From the NCBI RefSeq assembly GCF_027912675.1, contig NZ_CP115757.1, positions 1,674,001-1,738,000 of the forward strand: a stretch of 64,000 nucleotides of DNA, read 5' to 3'. The notes under the pieces were generated by a model. It was not told the origin of the DNA, did not search any database, and was given only the letters and a program-made list of their open reading frames with translations. Source of the DNA: Paracoccus sp. SCSIO 75233. GTDB lineage: Bacteria > Pseudomonadota > Alphaproteobacteria > Rhodobacterales > Rhodobacteraceae. A program made the translations under genes and the position numbers. This document shows, piece after piece, positions 6,757 to 61,722 of this stretch (its first letter is position 1; every line of letters begins with the position of its first letter).

Positions 6757-7338
6757 TCAGCCCCCGGCCCCGGCGTCCAGAACCCCCAGCAGATAGCGGC
6801 GCGGCAGCACCAGCAGATCCGCAGGCGCGCTCCGGCACAGCGCCTTGCGCAGATAGACCCCGTCGATCAGCGCCGCCAGCGTCTCCGCCACCGGCTCCGC
6901 CTCCGGCCCAAGCAAGGCGCGCAGATCCACCAGCAGCGTCGAGCGCAGCCGTCGCTGATAGACCGCCAGCAGCCGCGCGGCTTCCGTATCCTGCTGGGCG
7001 AGAACGTAGAAATTCAGCCACGCCGCGACCGTATCGTCATCGAAATGCTCCGGGCCGAGACTGGCTTCCAGCACCGCCAGCAGCCGCGCCCGTGACCCCT
7101 CTGCCTCAGCCAATGCCTTGCGCACCGCGACGCCATAGCGGCGCAGGATCTCGCGCATGGCGGAAAGGAACATCATGTCCTTGGAGCCGAAATAATGATG
7201 CGCCAGTGCCGGGGACATCCCCGCCTCCCGCGCGATTTCGGCGACCGTCACGTCAATCGTGCCGGATCGCGCAATCGTTTGGATTGCGGCGTTGATCAAT
7301 TCGCTTTTTCGGGTATTCTCCCGCGCACGCTTACGCAT
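6757..7338 (-). CDS. betI: BetI-type TetR repressor
   Basis: A 193-residue TetR-family repressor. The N-terminal helix-turn-helix reads IDVTVAEIAREAGMSPALAHHYF, close to choline-sensing BetI; the C terminus (DTVAAWLNFYVLAQQDTEAARLL) resembles the BetI ligand domain. BetI represses choline uptake and glycine-betaine synthesis genes until choline is present. It is divergent from choXWV, and a perfect palindrome lies in the shared 80-bp gap. The betaine-synthesis genes betABC that often follow are absent here. Confidence 0.88.
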   Translation of the reverse strand: MRKRARENTRKSELINAAIQTIARSGTIDVTVAEIAREAGMSPALAHHYFGSKDMMFLSAMREILRRYGVAVRKALAEAEGSRARLLAVLEASLGPEHFDDDTVAAWLNFYVLAQQDTEAARLLAVYQRRLRSTLLVDLRALLGPEAEPVAETLAALIDGVYLRKALCRSAPADLLVLPRRYLLGVLDAGAGG

Positions 7339-52386: not shown

Positions 52387-53037
52387 TCAGTCCTTCGGGC
52401 GCAAATAGCCCAGTACCATCTCCGCCGCCTCATCGGCTCGGCGGCGCAGCCACGGCTCGTCCATCGGCAGACCGAAGACTGCCCGCAGGGTGTGGATATT
52501 CGACACCGGAAACCAGCAAAGCGAGGCAACGAAGATATAGAACTCCAGCGGGTCGGCATCGGCCCTGAACACGCCGTCCTTCGCGCCGCGTTTCAGCACC
52601 GTCTGAAGCCGGTCGACCAGAACCGATTGCACGGATTTCACATCGCTGATCTGCCGGATCGTCTCACCACCCAACAGGTTTTCGGTGTTCAGCATCCGGA
52701 TGAACCACGGTTTCTCGCGGAAATGGTCCATTGTGAAGCGCACCAGAGTCCGGATCGCGTCGTCGGGCGACAGATCGTCAAGCTGCAACTCCCGCTCGCC
52801 CTCGCGGATCTGGACATAGGCCTGTTTCAGCGCCGCGGCATAAAGCCCGTCCTTGTCGCCGAAATGATCGTAGATCAGCGGCTTGCTGACCCCGGCGGAA
52901 CTGGCGATCCGCTCGACCCGCGCGCCGGAATGGCCATAGGTGGAAAATTCCTCAAGCGCGGCCTGAAGGATCAGCCTGCGGCTCTGTTCGGCATCGCGCG
53001 GTCTGCGGGCGGGGGCGGGCTTGCTGTGGTCAGACAT
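52387..53037 (-). CDS. TetR-family regulator of the catabolic/TTT cluster
   Basis: A 216-residue regulator. N-terminal HTH: LILQAALEEFSTYGHSGARV, ERIASSAGVSKPLIYDHFGD. The C-terminal effector domain contains FREKPWFIRMLNTENLLGGE. It is the last gene on this strand after Gfo/Idh-DUF993-isomerase and is the natural candidate to bind the TTACCTAC palindromes at 56347 and 61682. Its ligand would be the substrate or an intermediate. A separate inverted repeat (53047-53070) precedes it. Confidence 0.85.
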   Translation of the reverse strand: MSDHSKPAPARRPRDAEQSRRLILQAALEEFSTYGHSGARVERIASSAGVSKPLIYDHFGDKDGLYAAALKQAYVQIREGERELQLDDLSPDDAIRTLVRFTMDHFREKPWFIRMLNTENLLGGETIRQISDVKSVQSVLVDRLQTVLKRGAKDGVFRADADPLEFYIFVASLCWFPVSNIHTLRAVFGLPMDEPWLRRRADEAAEMVLGYLRPKD

Positions 53038-53178: not shown

Positions 53179-54006
53179 TCAGCAAACCGTCCGCGCACGC
53201 TCGACGATGGTTTCCATCACCTCGTCCGCGTCGCGCGTCCACCAGTCCAGGGCCGAGAAGATTTCAACCTCGTTCAGCCCGTCGAATCCGTTCGCCTCCG
53301 CCAGTCCGCGCAGCCGGGGGATGTCGATCACCCCGTCCCCCATCATGCCACGGTCGGTCAGCATGTCGCGGGTCGGCACCAGCCAGTCGCAGATATGAAA
53401 CGCCATGATCCGCTCGCGCCCGGCGCGCTCAAGCTGCGCCTCGAGCTCGAAATCCCACCACACGTGATAGACATCGACCGCGCAGCCGATCCCCGGGCCG
53501 AGCCGGTCGCAGATATCGAGCGCCTGCCGCATCGTGTTCACGCAGGCCCGGTCGGCGGCATACATCGGATGCAGCGGCTCGATCGCGATCTTCATCCCGA
53601 CCTCGCGACCATATTCGAGCGTTTTCGCCAGCCCCTCCTCAACCATCCGCCATGCGGCTGGCAGGTCGCGGCTGTCCTTGGCCAGCCCGCCAACCACCAT
53701 GACGAGGCAGTCCGCCCCGATCTCCGCCGCCTCGTCAACGGCGCGGCGGTTATCGTCGATAACGGTCTGATCGACCGCACCGCGATCGGTGAACCAGCCG
53801 CCACGGCACAGCCCGGAGACGCTGAGCCCCGCCTCGCGGATCGCCGCTGCGGCCTTGCTGACGCCCATCTCCTGCAACTTGTCCCGCCACGGCGCGATGC
53901 CGCCGAAACCGTGGCGCTTGCAGCCCTCGATACACTGGGCAAGATCCCATTGCTCCCGCACGGTCGCCGTGTTCAGCGACAGCCGTTCCGGGGTGATCGC
54001 GCTCAT
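53179..54006 (-). CDS. Xylose-isomerase-like TIM-barrel sugar isomerase/epimerase (copy 1)
   Basis: A 275-residue AP-endonuclease-2/xylose-isomerase-like barrel. Metal ligands are recognisable as E in IAIEPLHPMY, D in GCAVDVYHVWWD, H in MAFHICDW and E in LNEVEIFS. Probably isomerises or epimerises a keto-sugar or keto-acid intermediate. ATG overlaps the DUF993 stop (ATGA), indicating co-translation. Confidence 0.83.
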   Translation of the reverse strand: MSAITPERLSLNTATVREQWDLAQCIEGCKRHGFGGIAPWRDKLQEMGVSKAAAAIREAGLSVSGLCRGGWFTDRGAVDQTVIDDNRRAVDEAAEIGADCLVMVVGGLAKDSRDLPAAWRMVEEGLAKTLEYGREVGMKIAIEPLHPMYAADRACVNTMRQALDICDRLGPGIGCAVDVYHVWWDFELEAQLERAGRERIMAFHICDWLVPTRDMLTDRGMMGDGVIDIPRLRGLAEANGFDGLNEVEIFSALDWWTRDADEVMETIVERARTVC

Positions 54007-55151
54007 ATCTCGACCCCACGCGCGGCAAAGACCGGACGCGCCCGCGCCGCCACCGTCTCCGGATCGGTGAACAGTCCGGCTGCGTTCCCCATGCGGATGA
54101 TGTCCGCCAGATGCAGCGTTGAGCGGGCGCTTTCCTGACCGCCGATCATGGTGAAGTGATCCTGATGGCCGGTCAGATAGGCCATGAACACCACCCCGGT
54201 CTTATAAAACCGCGTGGGCGCCTTGAAGATATGCCGCGAGAGCGGGACGGTCGGGGCGAAGGTGGCGTTATAGTCGTCCATCCGGCCCTCGGCCAGTTGC
54301 GACAAGGCCCGCGCCGCCGCCCCGGCAATCGGATCGAAGATACCGAGCAGCGCATCGGAATACCCCTCGTCGTCGCCCGCGATCAGATCGGGGTAGTTGA
54401 AGTCGTCGCCCGTATACATCCGCACGCCTTCCGGCAGGCGGCGGCGCATGGCGATTTCCTTTTCGGCGCTGAGCAGGCTGATCTTGATGCCGTCGACCTT
54501 GGCCGCATTCGCCTCGATCACCTGCAATGCGGTTTCCATCGCCGCCATGTGGTCGGCATTGCCCCAATAGCCCTGAAGGGCGGGATCGAACATCTCGCCC
54601 AGCCAATGCAGCACCGCCGGTTTCTGCAAACCGCCCAGCACGCGGGAATAGACGCGGATATAATCATCCGGCGATTTCGCCGCCTTCGCGAGCGCGCGGC
54701 TGGCCATCAGGATCACCTGACTGCCGGTCGCCTCGACCGCCTCGCATTGCTCCTCATAGGCGCGGATCACGTCGTCGACGGTCACATCCGGCCCCGGCGC
54801 GATATGATCGGTCCCGGCACCGGAGGCGATCAGATGACCGGCGGGCTTCGCGATCTCCATCGAACGCCGGATCAGCTCCAGCGAGGTCGGCCAGTCCAGC
54901 CCCATGCCCCGCTGCGCCGTATCCATCGCCTCGGCCACGCCGAAACCCAAGCCCCAGAGATATTCGCGAAACGCCAGCGTCCGGTCCCAGTCAACCGGCG
55001 TATCCAGCCACGGATCGGCATCGGCCAGCGGATCGGCGACCACATGTGCCGCCGCAAAGGCCGTGCGGTTCCAGTTGCCGGTCGCCTTCGGCTCCGGCCC
55101 GGCCTGCAAGGTGACAGCACCGCCCGGCAGGTTCAGGTTCAGCTTGCTCAT
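54003..55151 (-). CDS. DUF993, dihydrodipicolinate synthase-like protein
   Basis: A 382-residue protein. The barrel part contains VDGIKISLLSAEKE, where K223 is at the position of the Schiff-base lysine of the DapA/NanA family, then MYTGDDFNYPDLIAGDDEGY. An aldolase or dehydratase acting on a keto-acid is therefore plausible; no member is well characterised to my knowledge. Start at 55151 overlaps the Gfo/Idh stop (ATGA); the longer frame lies within that gene. Confidence 0.8.
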   Translation of the reverse strand: MSKLNLNLPGGAVTLQAGPEPKATGNWNRTAFAAAHVVADPLADADPWLDTPVDWDRTLAFREYLWGLGFGVAEAMDTAQRGMGLDWPTSLELIRRSMEIAKPAGHLIASGAGTDHIAPGPDVTVDDVIRAYEEQCEAVEATGSQVILMASRALAKAAKSPDDYIRVYSRVLGGLQKPAVLHWLGEMFDPALQGYWGNADHMAAMETALQVIEANAAKVDGIKISLLSAEKEIAMRRRLPEGVRMYTGDDFNYPDLIAGDDEGYSDALLGIFDPIAGAAARALSQLAEGRMDDYNATFAPTVPLSRHIFKAPTRFYKTGVVFMAYLTGHQDHFTMIGGQESARSTLHLADIIRMGNAAGLFTDPETVAARARPVFAARGVEI

Positions 55152-56308
55152 AGTCCCAGATCCTCCAGATCGACCCAGCGGCGCTCCTTGGAGCTTTGAT
55201 AGCCCGCCTCGGCCAGTTGTACGCCTTTCGCACCTTCGGCCAGCGTGTAGGACCACGGCGCGTCCTCGACCACATGGCGCAGGAATTGTTCCCACTGCAC
55301 CTTGAAGCCGTTATCGAAATGGGTGTTGTCCGGCACCTCTTCCCAGTCCTCGAAGAAGTCGAGCGGCTGCGGCATGTCCGGGTTCCACACCGGCTTGGGC
55401 GTGTTCACCCGATGCTGGCTGACGCATTTATGCAGCCCCGCCACGGCAGAACCATGCGTGCCGTCGATCTGGAACGTCACCAGATCGTCGCGGCGAACGC
55501 GGGTACACCAGCTTGAGTTGATATGGGCGACAATATCCCCGTCCGGCCCGTCCAGCAGGAAGGTCGCATAGGCGGCATCGTCGGCGGTCGCCTTGTAGCG
55601 CGCACCCGCCTCATCCACGCGCTCGGGGATATGGGTGAAGCCGAGACAGCTGACCGATTTCACCGGCGCGATCACGTTATCCAGCACATAGCGCCAATGG
55701 CAGAGCATGTCGGAGATCATGCCCCCGCCATCCTCGGCCCGGTAGTTCCAGCTTGGCCGCTGGGCTTCCATCCAGTCGCCCTCGAACACCCAATAGCCGA
55801 ACTCCCCCTTGACCGAAAGCATCCGGCCAAAGAACCCGCTATCCCGCAAACGGCGCAGTTTCAGCAGTCCCGGCAGGTCCAGCTTGTCATGCACGATGCC
55901 GTTCTTGACGCCCTTGGCCTTGGCGTGTTTCGCGATCTCGACCGCCTCGGTCAGGCCCTCGGAGACCGGCTTTTCGGAATAGACATGCTTGCCCGCGTCG
56001 ATGGCCCTGCGCAGCAGACCGGGACGCATCTGCGTCGACGCCGCGTCGAAGAAGATCGTGTCGTCCTTATTCGCCAGCGCCGCGTCCAGATCGGTTGTCC
56101 AGCGCTCGACGCCGTGACGTTTGGCCAATGCCTCGATCTTTGCCGCATTACGCCCGACGATAATCGGATCGGGCACCAGACGGTCGCCGTTTTTCAGTGC
56201 CACCCCGCCCTGTTCGCGGATCGCGAGGACGGAGCGGATAAGATGCTGATTCATCCCCATGCGCCCCGTCACGCCATGCATGATGATGCCGATTCTTTGA
56301 GTGCTCAC
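55148..56308 (-). CDS. Gfo/Idh/MocA-family NAD(P)-dependent oxidoreductase
   Basis: A 386-residue dehydrogenase. N-terminal Rossmann fold (IGIIMHGVTGRMGMNQHL), GKHVYSEKPVSEGLTEA with the EKP motif typical of the family, then the C-terminal substrate domain. Likely oxidises a sugar or sugar acid hydroxyl. GTG start 56308 with GAGGA 7 bases ahead. First gene of the Gfo-DUF993-isomerase-TetR unit, with operator and promoter at 56347-56382. Confidence 0.88.
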   Translation of the reverse strand: MSTQRIGIIMHGVTGRMGMNQHLIRSVLAIREQGGVALKNGDRLVPDPIIVGRNAAKIEALAKRHGVERWTTDLDAALANKDDTIFFDAASTQMRPGLLRRAIDAGKHVYSEKPVSEGLTEAVEIAKHAKAKGVKNGIVHDKLDLPGLLKLRRLRDSGFFGRMLSVKGEFGYWVFEGDWMEAQRPSWNYRAEDGGGMISDMLCHWRYVLDNVIAPVKSVSCLGFTHIPERVDEAGARYKATADDAAYATFLLDGPDGDIVAHINSSWCTRVRRDDLVTFQIDGTHGSAVAGLHKCVSQHRVNTPKPVWNPDMPQPLDFFEDWEEVPDNTHFDNGFKVQWEQFLRHVVEDAPWSYTLAEGAKGVQLAEAGYQSSKERRWVDLEDLGL

Positions 56309-56346: not shown

Positions 56347-56382
56347 TTACCTACCAGTAGGTAATAAGTATGAAGCTGTCAA
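56347..56382 (-). promoter_or_regulatory. Promoter and TetR-type operator ahead of Gfo/Idh gene
   Basis: Palindrome TTACCTAC-CA-GTAGGTAA (56347-56364, perfect 8-bp arms). On the minus strand a perfect -35 TTGACA lies at 56382-56377, with the -10 region falling inside the palindrome. A twin site controls tctC at 61682-61722. The -35 overlaps the end of the enolase-superfamily gene. Confidence 0.72.
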
Positions 56383-57740
56383 TTCCCTTCGTCGTTCTGC
56401 ATCTCCGCCATCGCGTTCGATGCGCCAAAACCCGGCGCGGCAAGCGACGATATATTGACCGCCCCCGCCTTTACCGCCAGCGTCACCCGCTTGGCATCGC
56501 CGCGGAAAATGCCCGGATGCAGCTTCAGCATCCGCGCCCGTTCCGCCTCTGTCGCGCCCTGCATGCCGCCTGCGAAATGATGCCCGTTCCGCTCCACATC
56601 CGCGACGCCACAGGCTGAGGCCATCGCCGTGTCCTGCGTCCAGCACAGCCCCGGCTGACAGGTCAGATCCTCGCCGCTGAGCAAGGCCCCGGCCTGCCGC
56701 GCCCGCGCCATGTTCACAAGCGCCCGCAGCACCCCCTTGCAGCTTTTGATCGAGGTTCCGCCCCAGCCGAGCCGCAAGGCGTCCGCGAAGCTGTCCATGC
56801 CATCGTCGCTTTCGTCGATCACCAGCCTCGCGCCGAAATCCGCGCGGGTCGCCAGCGCGACATCGCGGGCAAAGGGCTGCTCGAAGAAGCGGATCTTGCC
56901 AGTCAGTTCCGCCAGACCGGGCGCGCGCAAGCGGTTCAGCAGGTCGCGGAAGGCGTCCGGCGTATATTGCTCATTCGCATCCAGCGTCACGCCGCCATCC
57001 ATATGGCCGCTCAGCACCGGCTGAAGTGCCAGAAGCCGCGCCGCATCCGCCTCCGGATCGCCTTTCAGCTTGATCTTCCATGATGTGATCCCGGTTGTGA
57101 TAATCACATCGGAAACTGTTACGGGCAGCCCGTCCTGCGGCGCGTCGGGGGGCGTTTCGACCAGCGGAGCATCGAATCCCACCGTGTGACGCAATGTGAT
57201 AGAATGCGGTTTCTCTATCGCATTCAGCGCGGCGTCATAGGCCTCCGGCGTCAGGTCGGCGGGCAGGATTTGTCCCAGCCCGAAGAGGTCCTGCCGCGCG
57301 GCGAGCCAGAACGGCTGCGCCACGCTGCGGCAGACCGCGTCGATCAGCGCCATCTCGATCAGGGCCGGCCCGAAACCGGCGGCGAGCGCGGGAACATCCG
57401 CCGGAAGATCGTCAATGACGGCCTGCCGCAGCCCGACGGACAATTCAGCGACCGAGCCACTCTGTCCGGTGATCAGCCGCGCGGCCGAGGCGACCGTGTG
57501 GCGCAATTCGTCTATCGTGTCGGCATTGCTCAACTCCGGGCGCTTGTCGAACCATCGGGGCACCATGAGCTGCGCGGCATATCCCGACACCTCCCGGCCC
57601 CCGATCACGGCGCGCAGCGTGCAATATGCTTCTGCCGTCTCCCGCACCTCGGTACTGCCGAACTGGAATGGCAGGCGCATCGTCACCGGACGCTCGGAAA
57701 TCTGCACATCAAGAACGGAGAGGCTTATCGGATCGCTCAT
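56379..57740 (-). CDS. Enolase-superfamily (mandelate racemase/MLE-like) enzyme
   Basis: A 453-residue enzyme, longer than the usual 370-400. Barrel residues of the MLE-type can be placed: K222-I-K224 (WKIKLKG), D254 (LDANEQYT), E287 (FFEQPF), D309/E310 (VIDESDDG) and K332/K335 (SIKSCKG). It probably abstracts a proton alpha to a carboxylate, to dehydrate or racemise a sugar acid. Overlaps the TIM-barrel gene upstream by 4 bases. Confidence 0.82.
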   Translation of the reverse strand: MSDPISLSVLDVQISERPVTMRLPFQFGSTEVRETAEAYCTLRAVIGGREVSGYAAQLMVPRWFDKRPELSNADTIDELRHTVASAARLITGQSGSVAELSVGLRQAVIDDLPADVPALAAGFGPALIEMALIDAVCRSVAQPFWLAARQDLFGLGQILPADLTPEAYDAALNAIEKPHSITLRHTVGFDAPLVETPPDAPQDGLPVTVSDVIITTGITSWKIKLKGDPEADAARLLALQPVLSGHMDGGVTLDANEQYTPDAFRDLLNRLRAPGLAELTGKIRFFEQPFARDVALATRADFGARLVIDESDDGMDSFADALRLGWGGTSIKSCKGVLRALVNMARARQAGALLSGEDLTCQPGLCWTQDTAMASACGVADVERNGHHFAGGMQGATEAERARMLKLHPGIFRGDAKRVTLAVKAGAVNISSLAAPGFGASNAMAEMQNDEGN

Positions 57741-58573
57741 GCCACAGCCCTTTCACATGCCCGCAGCGTGGCCGCCGCAATGGCAGCCGTCACGCGGGCG
57801 TCGATGACGGTCCTGAACGGCTCCACCCCGACGGGCTGCGACCAGCCGCTGTCACGCAACGCCGCGACGATCTCCGGGAACGGGTCGTCGCCGGTTCCGG
57901 GCGCGCCGCGATTGGTGTCGTTGGCGTGGATATGGCCGATCATCCCGGTTGGCACCCATTCGCGCAGCAGCCGGGCAACCGGCGGTTCGGTCAGACCGGC
58001 GGCGCTGATGTCGATCATGGTGCGGAATGCGGATTTGCCAACGGCATCGGCCAGCGCCGCGCCTTCAGCCACGGTGTTGATCACCTCCGTCTCAGCCGGT
58101 GACAGCGGTTCGATGCAATAGGTGATGCCCTTCCGCGCCGCCTCTGCCGCGACAGGGGCGAAAAATTCCGCCAGATGATCGCGCAGCGCGGCGTTCCCCA
58201 TCCCCTCCGGCCGCTTCCGCTGATTTGGCGAGCCATGCACCATCACCCGCCCGCCGAGATCGGCGCAAAGCCCGATCAGCGCCAGCAGAATATCCGCCGT
58301 CTCCGCCTGCCGCGCCGGGTCTGTGATCGACAGATCGGGATAGCCGCTCAGCAGCCAGTGCAGCCCGGTGACGCGCAGCCCGCTTTCCACGACCGTCGCG
58401 CGGATCTCCGCACGCGCGGCATCGCCCAGCAGATGCGGCGCCTCTCCAAGCGTTGAGGGCGCGAGTTCCAGCCCTATATAGCCAAGCGATTTCGCCACCT
58501 GGCATTGTTCCCGCAGCGACAGGCCCTCACCCGCCAGAAGCTCATTGCACAGGCTCAGATCAAGCATCGCCAT
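57737..58573 (-). CDS. Xylose-isomerase-like TIM-barrel sugar isomerase/epimerase (copy 2)
   Basis: A 278-residue barrel of the same family as 53179-54006 but clearly divergent from it. Metal ligands E in YCIEPLSPAE, D in MIDISAAG, H in GHIHANDTNRG and E in VGVEPFRT are all present. It overlaps the end of tctA by 14 bases and the enolase-superfamily gene by 4, so uptake and metabolism are translated together. Confidence 0.83.
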   Translation of the reverse strand: MAMLDLSLCNELLAGEGLSLREQCQVAKSLGYIGLELAPSTLGEAPHLLGDAARAEIRATVVESGLRVTGLHWLLSGYPDLSITDPARQAETADILLALIGLCADLGGRVMVHGSPNQRKRPEGMGNAALRDHLAEFFAPVAAEAARKGITYCIEPLSPAETEVINTVAEGAALADAVGKSAFRTMIDISAAGLTEPPVARLLREWVPTGMIGHIHANDTNRGAPGTGDDPFPEIVAALRDSGWSQPVGVEPFRTVIDARVTAAIAAATLRACERAVA

Positions 58574-60080
58574 GTCCCGTGATACGGCGTTTCAGCCTGC
58601 CGAATGTACGGCGGACGAAACCGAAATTGGACAGGATCGCGATGACGATGATCGCCACCAGCACCGCCGAGATCGGGCGAGTGAAGAACGGCGTCAGATC
58701 GCCATTGCTCAGCGTCAGGCTGCGCCGCAGATTGGTGTCGAGCATGGTGCCGAGAATGATCCCCAGCACCAGCGGCGCCATCGGGTATTTCATCTGCCGC
58801 AGCACGAAACCGATCAGCCCGAACGCGACCATGACATAGACATCGAACATCCGCTGCGACAGCGCATAGGGACCGATCACGCAAAGGGTGAAGACCAGCG
58901 GCATCAGATAGGCGTAAGGCACCCGCAGGACCTGCACGAACAGCCGTGTCATGCTGAGCCCGTAAATGGTCATCGCCACCGTCGCGAGGATCAGCATCCC
59001 GCCCATCAGGCTGATGAATTGCGGTTGCTCGATCATGATCATCGGGCCGGGGCGAATACCGTGGATGAACAGCGCCGCGATCAGCACGGCAGCACTGGCC
59101 GATCCCGGAACCGCCAGCGTCAGCGCCGGGATGAGCGAGCCGGGCACGACGGCACTGTTGCCGGTCTCTGCCGCGGTCAGCCCCTCGGTGCTGCCGTGGC
59201 CGTATTTCTCCGGCTCCTTGCTGACGCGCTTTGCGGCGGCGTAGCTGGCCCATGCGCCGATATCCTCACCGACGCCGGGTATCACGCCGACCAGCGTGCC
59301 GATGACGCCGGAGCGCAGCACCGTGATCCGGTAGCGCCACAACTCCCGGATGGAGGGCAGCACGCGGTCGGATTTGTCGCGAATGGCGGACACGACGCCC
59401 TGCTTGTGCCACATCGCGGTCATGATCTCCGCCAGCCCGAACACGCCGACCATGGCCGGGATCAACTGGATGCCGCCATTCATCTGCTGGGTGGGCGAGA
59501 AGCGGACATAGGCATGCAGCCCCTCCGATCCGATCATCGCCACCATCAGCCCCAGAATACCGGCGATATAGCCCTTGATCGGCGGGGAATCGACGGTGAG
59601 CTGGCCCGAGATCAGCACCCCGAACAGGGCCAGCCAGAACATCTCGTAACTGCCGAATTTCAGCGCCAGCTCGGCCAGCGGCGGCGCGATCAGCACCAGA
59701 ATGATGATCCCGACCAAGGTGCCCAACATGGAGCCTGCCGTGGCCAGCCCCATGGCCCGCCCGGCCCGCCCGCTTCGTGCCAGCGGATACCCGTCAAGCG
59801 AGGTCGCCGCACTGGCCGGGGTGCCGGGGATGTTCAGCAGGATCGCACTGCGCGAGCCGCCATAGATCGCCCCCATATACATGCAGATCAGCACCAGCAC
59901 AGCGGCGGTCGTGTCCATCGAGTAGGTCAGCGTTGTCATCAGCGCCACACCCATCGTTGCCGTCAGGCCGGGCAGCGCGCCCACCACAATGCCCAGCAGC
60001 ATCGACCATGCGACATGAAACAGCATGGTCGGGGTCATCAGGCTCCACAGCGCCGTGCCGAGTTCACCAAGCTGGCTCAT
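58560..60080 (-). CDS. tctA: Tripartite tricarboxylate transporter large permease (TctA)
   Basis: A 506-residue membrane protein with about 12 helices. GALPGLTATMGVALMTTLTY and NIPGTPASAATSLDGYPLAR then SGRAGRAMGLA are TctA signatures, repeated in diverged form in the second half. Uses ion gradient to import carboxylates delivered by the binding protein. ATGA overlap with tctB. Confidence 0.93.
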   Translation of the reverse strand: MSQLGELGTALWSLMTPTMLFHVAWSMLLGIVVGALPGLTATMGVALMTTLTYSMDTTAAVLVLICMYMGAIYGGSRSAILLNIPGTPASAATSLDGYPLARSGRAGRAMGLATAGSMLGTLVGIIILVLIAPPLAELALKFGSYEMFWLALFGVLISGQLTVDSPPIKGYIAGILGLMVAMIGSEGLHAYVRFSPTQQMNGGIQLIPAMVGVFGLAEIMTAMWHKQGVVSAIRDKSDRVLPSIRELWRYRITVLRSGVIGTLVGVIPGVGEDIGAWASYAAAKRVSKEPEKYGHGSTEGLTAAETGNSAVVPGSLIPALTLAVPGSASAAVLIAALFIHGIRPGPMIMIEQPQFISLMGGMLILATVAMTIYGLSMTRLFVQVLRVPYAYLMPLVFTLCVIGPYALSQRMFDVYVMVAFGLIGFVLRQMKYPMAPLVLGIILGTMLDTNLRRSLTLSNGDLTPFFTRPISAVLVAIIVIAILSNFGFVRRTFGRLKRRITGHGDA

Positions 60081-60562
60081 GGCAACCTCACAAGGAAGGC
60101 TTTTTCAAACAGCATGACCACGGCAAAAGCGGCGATCAGCCCGAATACCGCCGCCTGCGCCATGACCCTCGCCCGTGCGGATCCGGCGGTGTGCTGGTCC
60201 CACGAGAAGATCGTGGTGAACGCAGCGATGAAAACCGCCGTGGCCCAGTAGAACGGCAGCCAGCCGACCAGCACAAGCGCATAGAAACAGGTCAGCGCCA
60301 CGGTCAGACCAAGCCGCTTGGCCGAACCGTCACGGCCAAGCAGGACCGCGCCCTCCTCCGATTGCAGATCGGCCTGCAACCACAACAGCACCGCGCAGAC
60401 GGCAAGCGCCGCGCCCAGCAGCATGGGCATCAGCCCCGGAATGGATAACGGGTGAATCTGCCGGATCTCCAGCCGGTCCATCGTGAAACCGCCCACCAGC
60501 ATCGCGATGCCGAGCGCGAAAAAGACGCACGCCGTGATGCGATCCGCCACAGCCATTTTCAT
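60077..60562 (-). CDS. tctB: Tripartite tricarboxylate transporter small permease (TctB)
   Basis: A 161-residue protein with four helices: DRITACVFFALGIAMLVGGF, then LMPMLLGAALAVCAVLLW, LTCFYALVLVGWLPFYWAT and FGLIAAFAVVMLFEKAFL. Start at 60562 (ATG, GAGG 8 bases ahead) preferred over GTG at 60571. Overlaps tctA by 4 bases. Confidence 0.88.
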   Translation of the reverse strand: MKMAVADRITACVFFALGIAMLVGGFTMDRLEIRQIHPLSIPGLMPMLLGAALAVCAVLLWLQADLQSEEGAVLLGRDGSAKRLGLTVALTCFYALVLVGWLPFYWATAVFIAAFTTIFSWDQHTAGSARARVMAQAAVFGLIAAFAVVMLFEKAFLVRLP

Positions 60563-60638
60563 GGCATTCACCTCATGAGTTCAGGTTGTCCCGAAGGCCG
60601 CGGCAGGACGGACCCGCCGCGCCAGTGTTGAGCCGCGC

Positions 60639-61664
60639 TTATTCGGCGGCGCAGTCGATGCCGATTTCGGACGGATCGACGACAGCTTCGCCACGGGTAA
60701 CGCGGGCGCAGGCTTCTGCTTCCACCACCGGCAATGCGGCTGCAAGCGCATCCTCGCCATAGCTGGGCGCAAAGACCGCGCCGTTTTCATTGGCGTAGGC
60801 TTTCAGCGCCTCGCTTTCCATGACGTGATCCTGCCAGACCTGATCGACGGTGTCATAGACCTCCTGCGGCGCACCGACCGGGATGAACACCCCGAAGAAA
60901 TCCTGCGCGACATGAAAATCGGGCGCGAATTCGGTGATCGGCGGGATCGGGTCGCCGTCGCCGATTTCCAGCGGCGTGTCCGACAGCACCGTCAGCGGAC
61001 GCAGACGGCCGGCGCGGATCATCTCGGCCTGTTCCACGGCAAGCTGGGTGGTCGCCTGAACCTCGCCGCTGGCCGCCGCGATCACCGCCGGGTTGCCGCC
61101 GTCATAGGTGATCATCCGCGCGCCCGGCAGCTCTTCCGACAGCCCGTCCTTGATCGACGCCAGCGCCATGCCGCCAGAGCTGTTGACGCCTGCCGTGCCG
61201 ACCGTCACCTCGCCATCGCGCATCCCGCCCAGCAGTTCCTCGAAGCTCTGATATTCGCTGTCGGCATTCACGCTGACGACCGGCACATTCGCGACATGCA
61301 GGTAGATGCGATAATCCTCGATCGAGGTGTCCTGCAGCAGCCCGGTGATTGCATAGGTCGCGTTGTTGGCGATGGCATTCGCCGTCCAGGTATAGCCGTC
61401 GCGCGGCGCATCGAGCGCGGCCTGCGTCCCGATGGAGCCGGATGCGCCGGGCTGGTTGACCACCACGACCTCCACCCCGAGCGCCTCCTCCAGAATCGGG
61501 GCGACAACGCGCGTCACCTGATCGGTGGACCCGCCTGCCGCCCAGGGCACGATGATATTGATCGGCTTGTCAGGCTGCCACGCATATTCCGAATCCTGTG
61601 CGTTTGCAGCCACGGCTGACAGTGCAATTACCGCCGTGCAGGCAGCCATGCGAAACATAGACAT
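60639..61664 (-). CDS. tctC: Tripartite tricarboxylate transporter substrate-binding protein (TctC)
   Basis: A 341-residue periplasmic receptor. Signal peptide MFRMAACTAVIALSAVAANA; PINIIVPWAAGGSTDQVTRV, VVNQPGASGSIGTQAALDA and GTAGVNSSGGMALASI are Bug/TctC-type loops. The ligand, probably a hydroxy- or sugar acid, is not readable. First gene of the tctCBA-isomerase-enolase unit, with GGGGAGGA before its ATG and an operator upstream. Confidence 0.9.
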   Translation of the reverse strand: MSMFRMAACTAVIALSAVAANAQDSEYAWQPDKPINIIVPWAAGGSTDQVTRVVAPILEEALGVEVVVVNQPGASGSIGTQAALDAPRDGYTWTANAIANNATYAITGLLQDTSIEDYRIYLHVANVPVVSVNADSEYQSFEELLGGMRDGEVTVGTAGVNSSGGMALASIKDGLSEELPGARMITYDGGNPAVIAAASGEVQATTQLAVEQAEMIRAGRLRPLTVLSDTPLEIGDGDPIPPITEFAPDFHVAQDFFGVFIPVGAPQEVYDTVDQVWQDHVMESEALKAYANENGAVFAPSYGEDALAAALPVVEAEACARVTRGEAVVDPSEIGIDCAAE

Positions 61665-61681
61665 TCCATTCCTCCCCTTAA

Positions 61682-61722
61682 TTACCTACCGGTAGGTTAG
61701 AAGCGGTCCAGAGTCCTGTCAA
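61682..61722 (-). promoter_or_regulatory. Promoter and TetR-type operator ahead of tctC
   Basis: Palindrome TTACCTAC-CG-GTAGGTTA (61682-61699; one mismatch in the arms). On the minus strand TTGACA (61722-61717), 17-bp spacer and TAACCT (61699-61694) form a promoter whose -10 is the first half of the palindrome. A bound repressor would block it. Confidence 0.75.

What the first reader, a model, noticed from the sequence alone, without database searches (positions are those of the whole stretch)
56347..61722. Twin TetR-type operators define the regulon of the catabolic cluster
TTACCTAC-CA-GTAGGTAA at 56347-56364 and TTACCTAC-CG-GTAGGTTA at 61682-61699 are nearly identical 18-bp palindromes. Each lies downstream of a perfect minus-strand TTGACA -35 and overlaps the -10 region of the promoter for one of the two operons in the cluster. 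No other copy was seen in the window. The simplest reading is repression by the TetR protein at 52387-53037.
Basis: partly seen in the sequence, partly recalled or inferred. Interest (0 to 1): 0.7.

Follow-up and report, generated by a model that had tools for sequence, protein, structure and literature searches.

The report
Paired TetR operators of catabolic cluster
Two near-identical DNA switches sit on the two promoters of a nutrient-breakdown gene cluster, and comparison with related bacteria indicates that the repressor encoded in the cluster itself controls both.

Summary
In 13 genomes whose cluster TetR is ≥55% identical, the best-scoring site of every locus examined lies just before tctC or gfo. 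In 7 further genomes kept out of the motif it does so in 5; in the other 2 it precedes an operon with ABC-transporter genes where no tctCBA was found. A perfect TTGACA lies upstream of 14 of 21 sites. More distant cluster TetRs have a related site, GTAACY-N4-RGTTAC.

Two corrections. The operator unit is probably not the 18-bp palindrome as drawn but two overlapping TACC-N4-GGTA sites 4 bp apart (four TAC half-sites), as expected for a TetR binding as two dimers. And the 18-mer is not exclusive: in five other genomes it precedes operons with a cupin-like gene and an amine oxidase, with a different small TetR nearby in four. The −10 boxes match consensus poorly. Binding, repression, inducer and substrate are untested. 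A well-supported new local regulon of a known kind.

The parts
56347..56364 (.). operator O1 (TTACCTACCAGTAGGTAA), before the gfo operon; contains CTACC-AGTA-GGTAA at 56351-56364
61682..61699 (.). operator O2 (TTACCTACCGGTAGGTTA), before tctC; contains CTACC-GGTA-GGTAA on the minus strand at 61695-61682
56377..56382 (-). -35 TTGACA of the gfo-operon promoter, 12 bp from O1; overlaps the stop codon of the upstream gene
   Evidence: conserved in relatives
61717..61722 (-). -35 TTGACA of the tctC promoter, 17 bp from O2
   Evidence: conserved in relatives
60639..61664 (-). TctC, solute-binding protein of a tripartite tricarboxylate transporter (first gene of operon 1)
   Evidence: Pfam PF03401
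60077..60571 (-). TctB
   Evidence: Pfam PF07331
58560..60080 (-). TctA
   Evidence: Pfam PF01970
57737..58573 (-). sugar phosphate isomerase/epimerase-like TIM barrel
   Evidence: Pfam PF01261
56379..57740 (-). enolase-superfamily-like protein without a Pfam match (last gene of operon 1)
   Evidence: invariant KxK, DxN, E, DE, K in 21 sequences
55148..56308 (-). Gfo/Idh/MocA dehydrogenase (first gene of operon 2)
   Evidence: Pfam PF01408/PF22725
54003..55157 (-). DUF993 protein (start codon not settled; the listed ORF begins at 55295, the 384-aa reading used here at 55157)
   Evidence: Pfam PF06187; solved relative 4dnh
53179..54006 (-). second sugar phosphate isomerase/epimerase-like TIM barrel
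   Evidence: Pfam PF01261
52387..53037 (-). TetR regulator (TetR_N + TetR_C_29), proposed repressor; helix-3 stretch VSKPLIYDHF at residues 50-59

Best explanation
The TetR protein at 52387-53037 is the local repressor of this cluster. It binds O1 and O2, which lie between the -35 and the start codon, and blocks the promoters of operon 1 (tctCBA, isomerase, enolase-like) and operon 2 (gfo, DUF993, isomerase, probably tetR itself). A small molecule, probably the imported compound or a pathway intermediate, releases it. Shown: the sites, their uniqueness in the genome, their conservation together with the TetR, the conserved -35. Inferred: binding, repression, induction, operon structure, readthrough into tetR (autoregulation). 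The DNA unit read by one dimer is most likely TACC-N4-GGTA. O1, O2 and about half of the close-relative sites carry two such registers 4 bp apart (four TAC half-sites), so two dimers probably bind one operator.
For: Only two copies in the genome at <=2 mismatches. In 13 genomes with TetR >=55% identical, a weight matrix that leaves the tested genome out puts the best site of the locus within 104 bp before tctC or gfo in 14 of 14 loci (G094 gives two loci, tctCBA-tetR and gfo-DUF993 about 43 kb apart, each with a site). Sites precede tctC in 13 of 13 and gfo in 7 of 13; in L058, the one of the 13 where tetR is the first cluster gene, a site also precedes tetR. Genomes kept out of the matrix: top site before tctC or gfo in 5 of 7, before an operon with ABC-transporter genes in 2 of 7. 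Perfect TTGACA upstream in 14 of 21 sites, >=5/6 in 20 of 21 (two of these at implausible 4 and 6 bp), against 0.2% and 7.7% of random stretches. TACC-N4-GGTA 11 seen against 0.32 expected, TACC-N8-GGTA 7 against 0.20. Sites picked on N4 alone show a second register at offset 4 (mean 5.24 of 8; >=6 in 8 of 17; next highest offset, 10, mean 3.82). SKP helix with TACC sites (7 of 13 loci); NKR helix with GTAAC-N6-GTTAC (25 of 49 loci, 0 of 13 SKP loci).
Against: No binding or expression data. The -10 boxes are poor. The 13 genomes were chosen for a close TetR at the cluster, so its presence there is by construction; the independent figures are 7 of 7 and 62 of 80. O1 and O2 are not strictly paired: 6 of 13 near genomes have no gfo site. 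The SKP/NKR difference is a single event on the TetR tree; 24 of 49 NKR loci lack the exact GTAAC site, and an NKR paralogue of this genome has none near it. Over whole loci TACC-N4-GGTA is not enriched (18 places against 29 for its reversed control); its enrichment is confined to upstream regions. The same 18-mer stands beside a different TetR elsewhere. In the window tetR lies 141 bp after the preceding gene with no site of its own, so its inclusion in operon 2 is assumed.
Confidence: 0.87

Rival explanations
1. The operator is a single-dimer site with the 18-bp symmetry drawn by the first reader (TTACC-N8-GGTAA), and the inner TAC/GTA half-sites only fill the spacer.
For: TACC-N8-GGTA is enriched almost as strongly as N4 (7 seen against 0.20 expected); 7 of 21 sites are perfect in that register against 10 of 21 for N4, 17 of 21 are >=7/8 in either, and mean matches are 7.14 and 7.29. 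In L061 (both sites) and L143 the N8 register is the better one (7 against 6).
Against: N8 is poor (6/8) where N4 is perfect: L056 tctC, L058 tetR, L142; L188 has CTACC-GAAA-GGTAA and a second TACC-ATAC-GGTA before tctC. Distant orthologues keep the N4 geometry (GTAACY-N4-RGTTAC).
Confidence: 0.35
2. Another TetR-family protein of the genome, not the cluster-encoded one, binds O1 and O2.
For: 18 TetR_N matches in the genome; in other genomes of the same family the 18-mer stands beside a different, small TetR.
Against: Close TetRs found by a TetR-only search lie among the cluster genes in 7 of 7 family genomes, and the sites follow the cluster operons. The small TetR of L148 was not found in this genome (empty, no positive control). 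None of the 7 paralogue helices recovered from the 16 stretches scanned is SKP; the others were not recovered.
Confidence: 0.07
3. The site activates rather than represses (TetR-family activator).
For: A few TetR-family proteins activate (recalled).
Against: In 18 of 21 sites the operator begins 9-21 bp after the best -35 match, where a bound protein would block polymerase.
Confidence: 0.05

Closest known systems
RutR (TetR family, E. coli)
   Same: Best named NCBIfam match (64 bits) and, after 3npi, the nearest solved structures (4x1e, 6z1b, 3loc); binds a ~16-bp palindrome at its target promoters (PMC10891134, passages).
   Different: Far below the RutR equivalog cut-off (64 against 368 bits); RutR's operator letters differ (recalled) and its targets are other genes.
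DarR (mycobacterial/rhodococcal TetR-family repressor)
   Same: Binds as dimer-of-dimers on overlapping palindromes built of TXC half-sites read by a Lys-Gly pair of the recognition helix (PMC10636190, passages); the operators here hold four TAC half-sites and the helix has a Lys (K52) that is kept in most cluster TetRs (two NRR loci are exceptions).
   Different: Residue after the Lys is Pro here (Arg in the far group), not Gly; ligand and targets unrelated; two-dimer binding not shown here.
QacR / CprB type TetR regulators
   Same: Two dimers on one operator, longer than the 15-17 bp sites of single-dimer members (PMC4150764, abstract and passages).
   Different: Their operators are 22-32 bp and in several cases non-palindromic (same source); here 18-22 bp and strongly palindromic; stoichiometry untested.
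Small TetR beside cupin-like/amine-oxidase operons in the same family of bacteria
   Same: Almost the same 18-mer before the operon (L144, L145, L146, L148, L152).
   Different: Different TetR (in L148 only TetR_N matches; helix LTSAGVHHYF) and different genes. The TetR was seen near four of the five, about 5 kb away in L146, and not seen in L145.

Membership tests
TetR family of transcription regulators | N-terminal TetR_N helix-turn-helix domain | tested here: met
   PF00440 E 4e-14, 52.6 bits against a cut-off of 24
TetR family of transcription regulators | C-terminal ligand/dimer domain | tested here: met
   PF17938 TetR_C_29 E 5.8e-34 over residues 90-207
TetR family of transcription regulators | palindromic operator at the target promoter bound by the protein | tested here: inconclusive
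   palindromes conserved at the promoters; binding not testable here
RutR | score above the RutR equivalog cut-off | tested here: not met
   64 bits against 368
TetR regulators that bind as two dimers (QacR, CprB, DarR) | overlapping half-site registers in the operator | tested here: met
   sequence only: second TACC-N4-GGTA register at offset 4, >=6/8 in 8 of 17 sites picked on N4 alone; 11 of 21 in the hand-listed set
TetR regulators that bind as two dimers (QacR, CprB, DarR) | four subunits per operator | not testable with these tools
   needs footprinting or stoichiometry

The most novel reading that the evidence does not exclude
A TetR subfamily tied to DUF993 catabolic clusters reads a four-half-site operator (TAC-x-TAC-xx-GTA-x-GTA) as two overlapping dimers 4 bp apart. 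Within the family the half-site switched between TACC and GTAACY together with the recognition helix (SKP, NKR). The same operator also fronts the transporter operon when the transporter is swapped for an ABC type.
Probability: 0.45. Interest if true: 0.5.

Novelty: new member of a known kind. Interest (0 to 1): 0.36.

Why it matters
It gives a concrete, testable operator and regulon for a gene set built round DUF993, a Pfam family of unknown function; a full-text search of the open-access library for that name found no paper. It also gives a handle on the unknown substrate: in two genomes the operator stands before an operon with ABC-transporter genes where no tctCBA was found, and the inducer of the repressor should be the substrate or an intermediate of the pathway. 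The paired difference in helix and half-site is a small natural experiment in TetR recognition.

Tried and rejected
Repeated-palindrome search within each locus: too noisy in GC-rich DNA to be used, although O1/O2 stood out in the window. Sequence search of solved structures for the enolase-like protein: no match. Other CTACC-N4-GGTAR matches in the own genome (C1:2354772 and C3:1406): no promoter setting recognised, taken as chance. Prediction that the NKR-type paralogue at C1:3051516 has GTAAC-N6-GTTAC near it: failed; 18 places at one mismatch in the genome, none near it, reversed control 87, and no qualifying palindrome in the 5 kb scanned.

Literature. Six 14-16-base operator strings: no paper of the library holds any (an earlier search, mixed in two short strings and showed 15 of 606 papers, none about a TetR operator by title). 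Papers linking this gene set to a TetR: two searches, nothing relevant among the 12 of 50 and 12 of 71 listed. Papers on 3-keto-glycoside and levoglucosan pathways with Gfo and isomerase proteins were seen in a search listing only, so no substrate is claimed.

Full report
Observation. A search with up to 3 mismatches finds only these two in the window, and 100 shuffles find none. In the 3.89 Mb genome they are the only matches at ≤2 mismatches. Minus-strand TTGACA lies 12 bp before O1 and 17 bp before O2. The −10 hexamers at 16-18 bp spacing are poor (2/6 and 3/6), and the consensus scan lists neither promoter.

Anatomy. All cluster genes are on the minus strand. Operon 1: tctC, tctB, tctA, an isomerase-like TIM barrel, an enolase-like protein. 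O1 lies in the 70 bp between that protein and gfo, and its −35 overlaps the stop codon. Operon 2: gfo, DUF993, a second isomerase-like protein, then, after 141 bp, the TetR. Operon structure is inferred from spacing and strand. The enolase-like protein has no Pfam match, but 21 aligned sequences keep K222xK224, D254xN256, E287, D309-E310 and K332, which resembles the enolase superfamily (recalled signature).

Comparative test. I searched 295 genomes of the family with the TetR: 7 besides this one have a relative ≥56% identical, and all 7 hits lie among cluster genes. Together, with one duplicate removed, 13 genomes have a close TetR: window, L055-L059, L061, G094 (L135/L136), G057 (L137), G152 (L139), G263 (L141), G007 (L142), G209 (L143). 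The TetR gene changes its place in the cluster. With a weight matrix that leaves the tested genome out, the top site of each locus (11-21 kb) is before tctC or gfo in 14 of 14 loci.

Because the seed sites were chosen by eye near those genes, I added genomes that gave no seed. Of nine non-duplicate stretches, seven have a TetR 58-71% identical; some are of the same genus as a seed genome (L182 with G152; L184 and L186 with L059; L188 and L189 with the window). The top site is before tctC or gfo in 5 (L182, L184, L186, L187, L188). In L183 it is 33 bp before the listed ORF start of an ABC solute-binding protein (about 135 bp before a more likely internal ATG), between it and a divergent Gfo gene. 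In L189 it is 23 bp before an aldehyde dehydrogenase gene followed by ABC-transporter genes. tctCBA was not found in either stretch.

Promoters. Of 21 near sites, 14 have a perfect TTGACA and 20 have ≥5/6 upstream, against 0.2% and 7.7% of random stretches of the same loci. Two of the 20 are at 4 and 6 bp and are not credible. Spacing is 16-17 bp in 11 of 13 tctC sites and 9-16 bp in 6 of 7 gfo sites. A repressor that covers the −10 would need this.

The DNA unit. A spacing scan in 39 upstream regions of the near group gives main peaks at N4 and N8: for TACC/GGTA 11 against 0.32 expected and 7 against 0.20. The 18-mer is TACC-TACC-GGTA-GGTA, so N8 and two N4 registers coexist, and over the 21 sites both fit almost equally (N4 mean 7.29, N8 mean 7.14 of 8). 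When sites are picked on N4 alone (17 of 39 regions pass; 2.9% of random stretches do), a second register appears at 4 bp (mean 5.24 of 8; ≥6 in 8 of 17); the next highest is offset 10 with 3.82. Single-register sites exist (L058 tetR, L056 tctC). More distant cluster TetRs (37-50%) have GTAAC-N6-GTTAC, i.e. GTAACY-N4-RGTTAC, 24 against 0.74 expected in 127 upstream regions. DarR binds as two dimers on overlapping palindromes of TXC half-sites read by a Lys-Gly pair (PMC10636190, passages), and CprB and QacR bind as two dimers (PMC4150764, abstract and passages).

Regulator and site differ together. Helix 3 reads SKP(L/M)IY in the near group and mostly NKRM(L/I)Y in the far group; six other loci read NRR (two), DKK, NKS, NKA or SKR, and one row has no helix. 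TACC-N4-GGTA occurs outside the cluster genes in 7 of 13 SKP loci and 3 of 49 NKR loci (Fisher p 3e-4); GTAAC-N6-GTTAC in 0 of 13 and 25 of 49 (p 8e-4); the 18 loci without a usable TetR have 1 and 3. Reversed-pattern controls over whole loci are 29 for the first (real 18) and 0 for the second (real 38), so only the second is enriched over whole loci. SKP loci form one clade, one change on the tree, support 0.989, so the p values overstate independence. Most Bradyrhizobium loci have NKR helices but no GTAAC site, and an NKR paralogue in this genome has none nearby. The helix alone does not predict the site.

Specificity of the 18-mer. At ≤2 mismatches it occurs at 27 places in 22 of 295 family genomes. 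Six are in DUF993 clusters (G000 two, G057 one, G094 two, G152 one). Five are before operons that hold a cupin-like gene and an amine oxidase (L144, L145, L146, L148, L152), with a TetR nearby in four (about 5 kb off in L146). Pfam was run on the cupin and amine oxidase of L148 and on the TetRs of L144, L146, L148 and L152; the rest is by resemblance in the ORF list. The other 16 places were not assigned to a regulon.

Verdict. The cluster TetR as repressor at O1 and O2 is the best reading (0.87). Two-dimer binding is likely but open. Of 61 genomes of the genus, this one included, 12 have a DUF993 gene; of four others fetched, two carry the TetR. The cluster is patchy and may be horizontally acquired (inference).

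Noticed in passing
L144, L145, L146, L148, L152 (other genomes of the family): Nearly the same 18-mer stands before operons with a cupin-like (Cupin_7 in L148) gene and an amine oxidase, with a different small TetR nearby in four of the five; a second regulon with a look-alike operator.
   Followed up: partly
window 56379-57740 (-): Enolase-like protein with no Pfam match but invariant KxK, DxN, E, DE and K in 21 aligned sequences; probably an unrecognised branch of the enolase superfamily.
   Followed up: partly
window 56377-56382 (-): The -35 TTGACA of the second promoter overlaps the TGA stop codon of the preceding gene.
   Followed up: yes
L183 15021-19338; L189 384-4406: Transporter swap: the operator precedes an operon with ABC-transporter genes (with a Gfo protein, or with an aldehyde dehydrogenase) where tctCBA was not found in the stretch.
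   Followed up: yes
L188 2876-2902: Two TACC-N4-GGTA sites 15 bp apart before tctC in a genome of the same genus, unlike the 4-bp overlap of the window.
   Followed up: no
window about 7162-7299 (-): A second TetR_N match lies in the window, far from the cluster (genome C1:1681162-1681299).
   Followed up: no
L189 4538-6535 (+): One ORF with both an IclR-type helix-turn-helix and a periplasmic binding protein domain next to the TetR.
   Followed up: no
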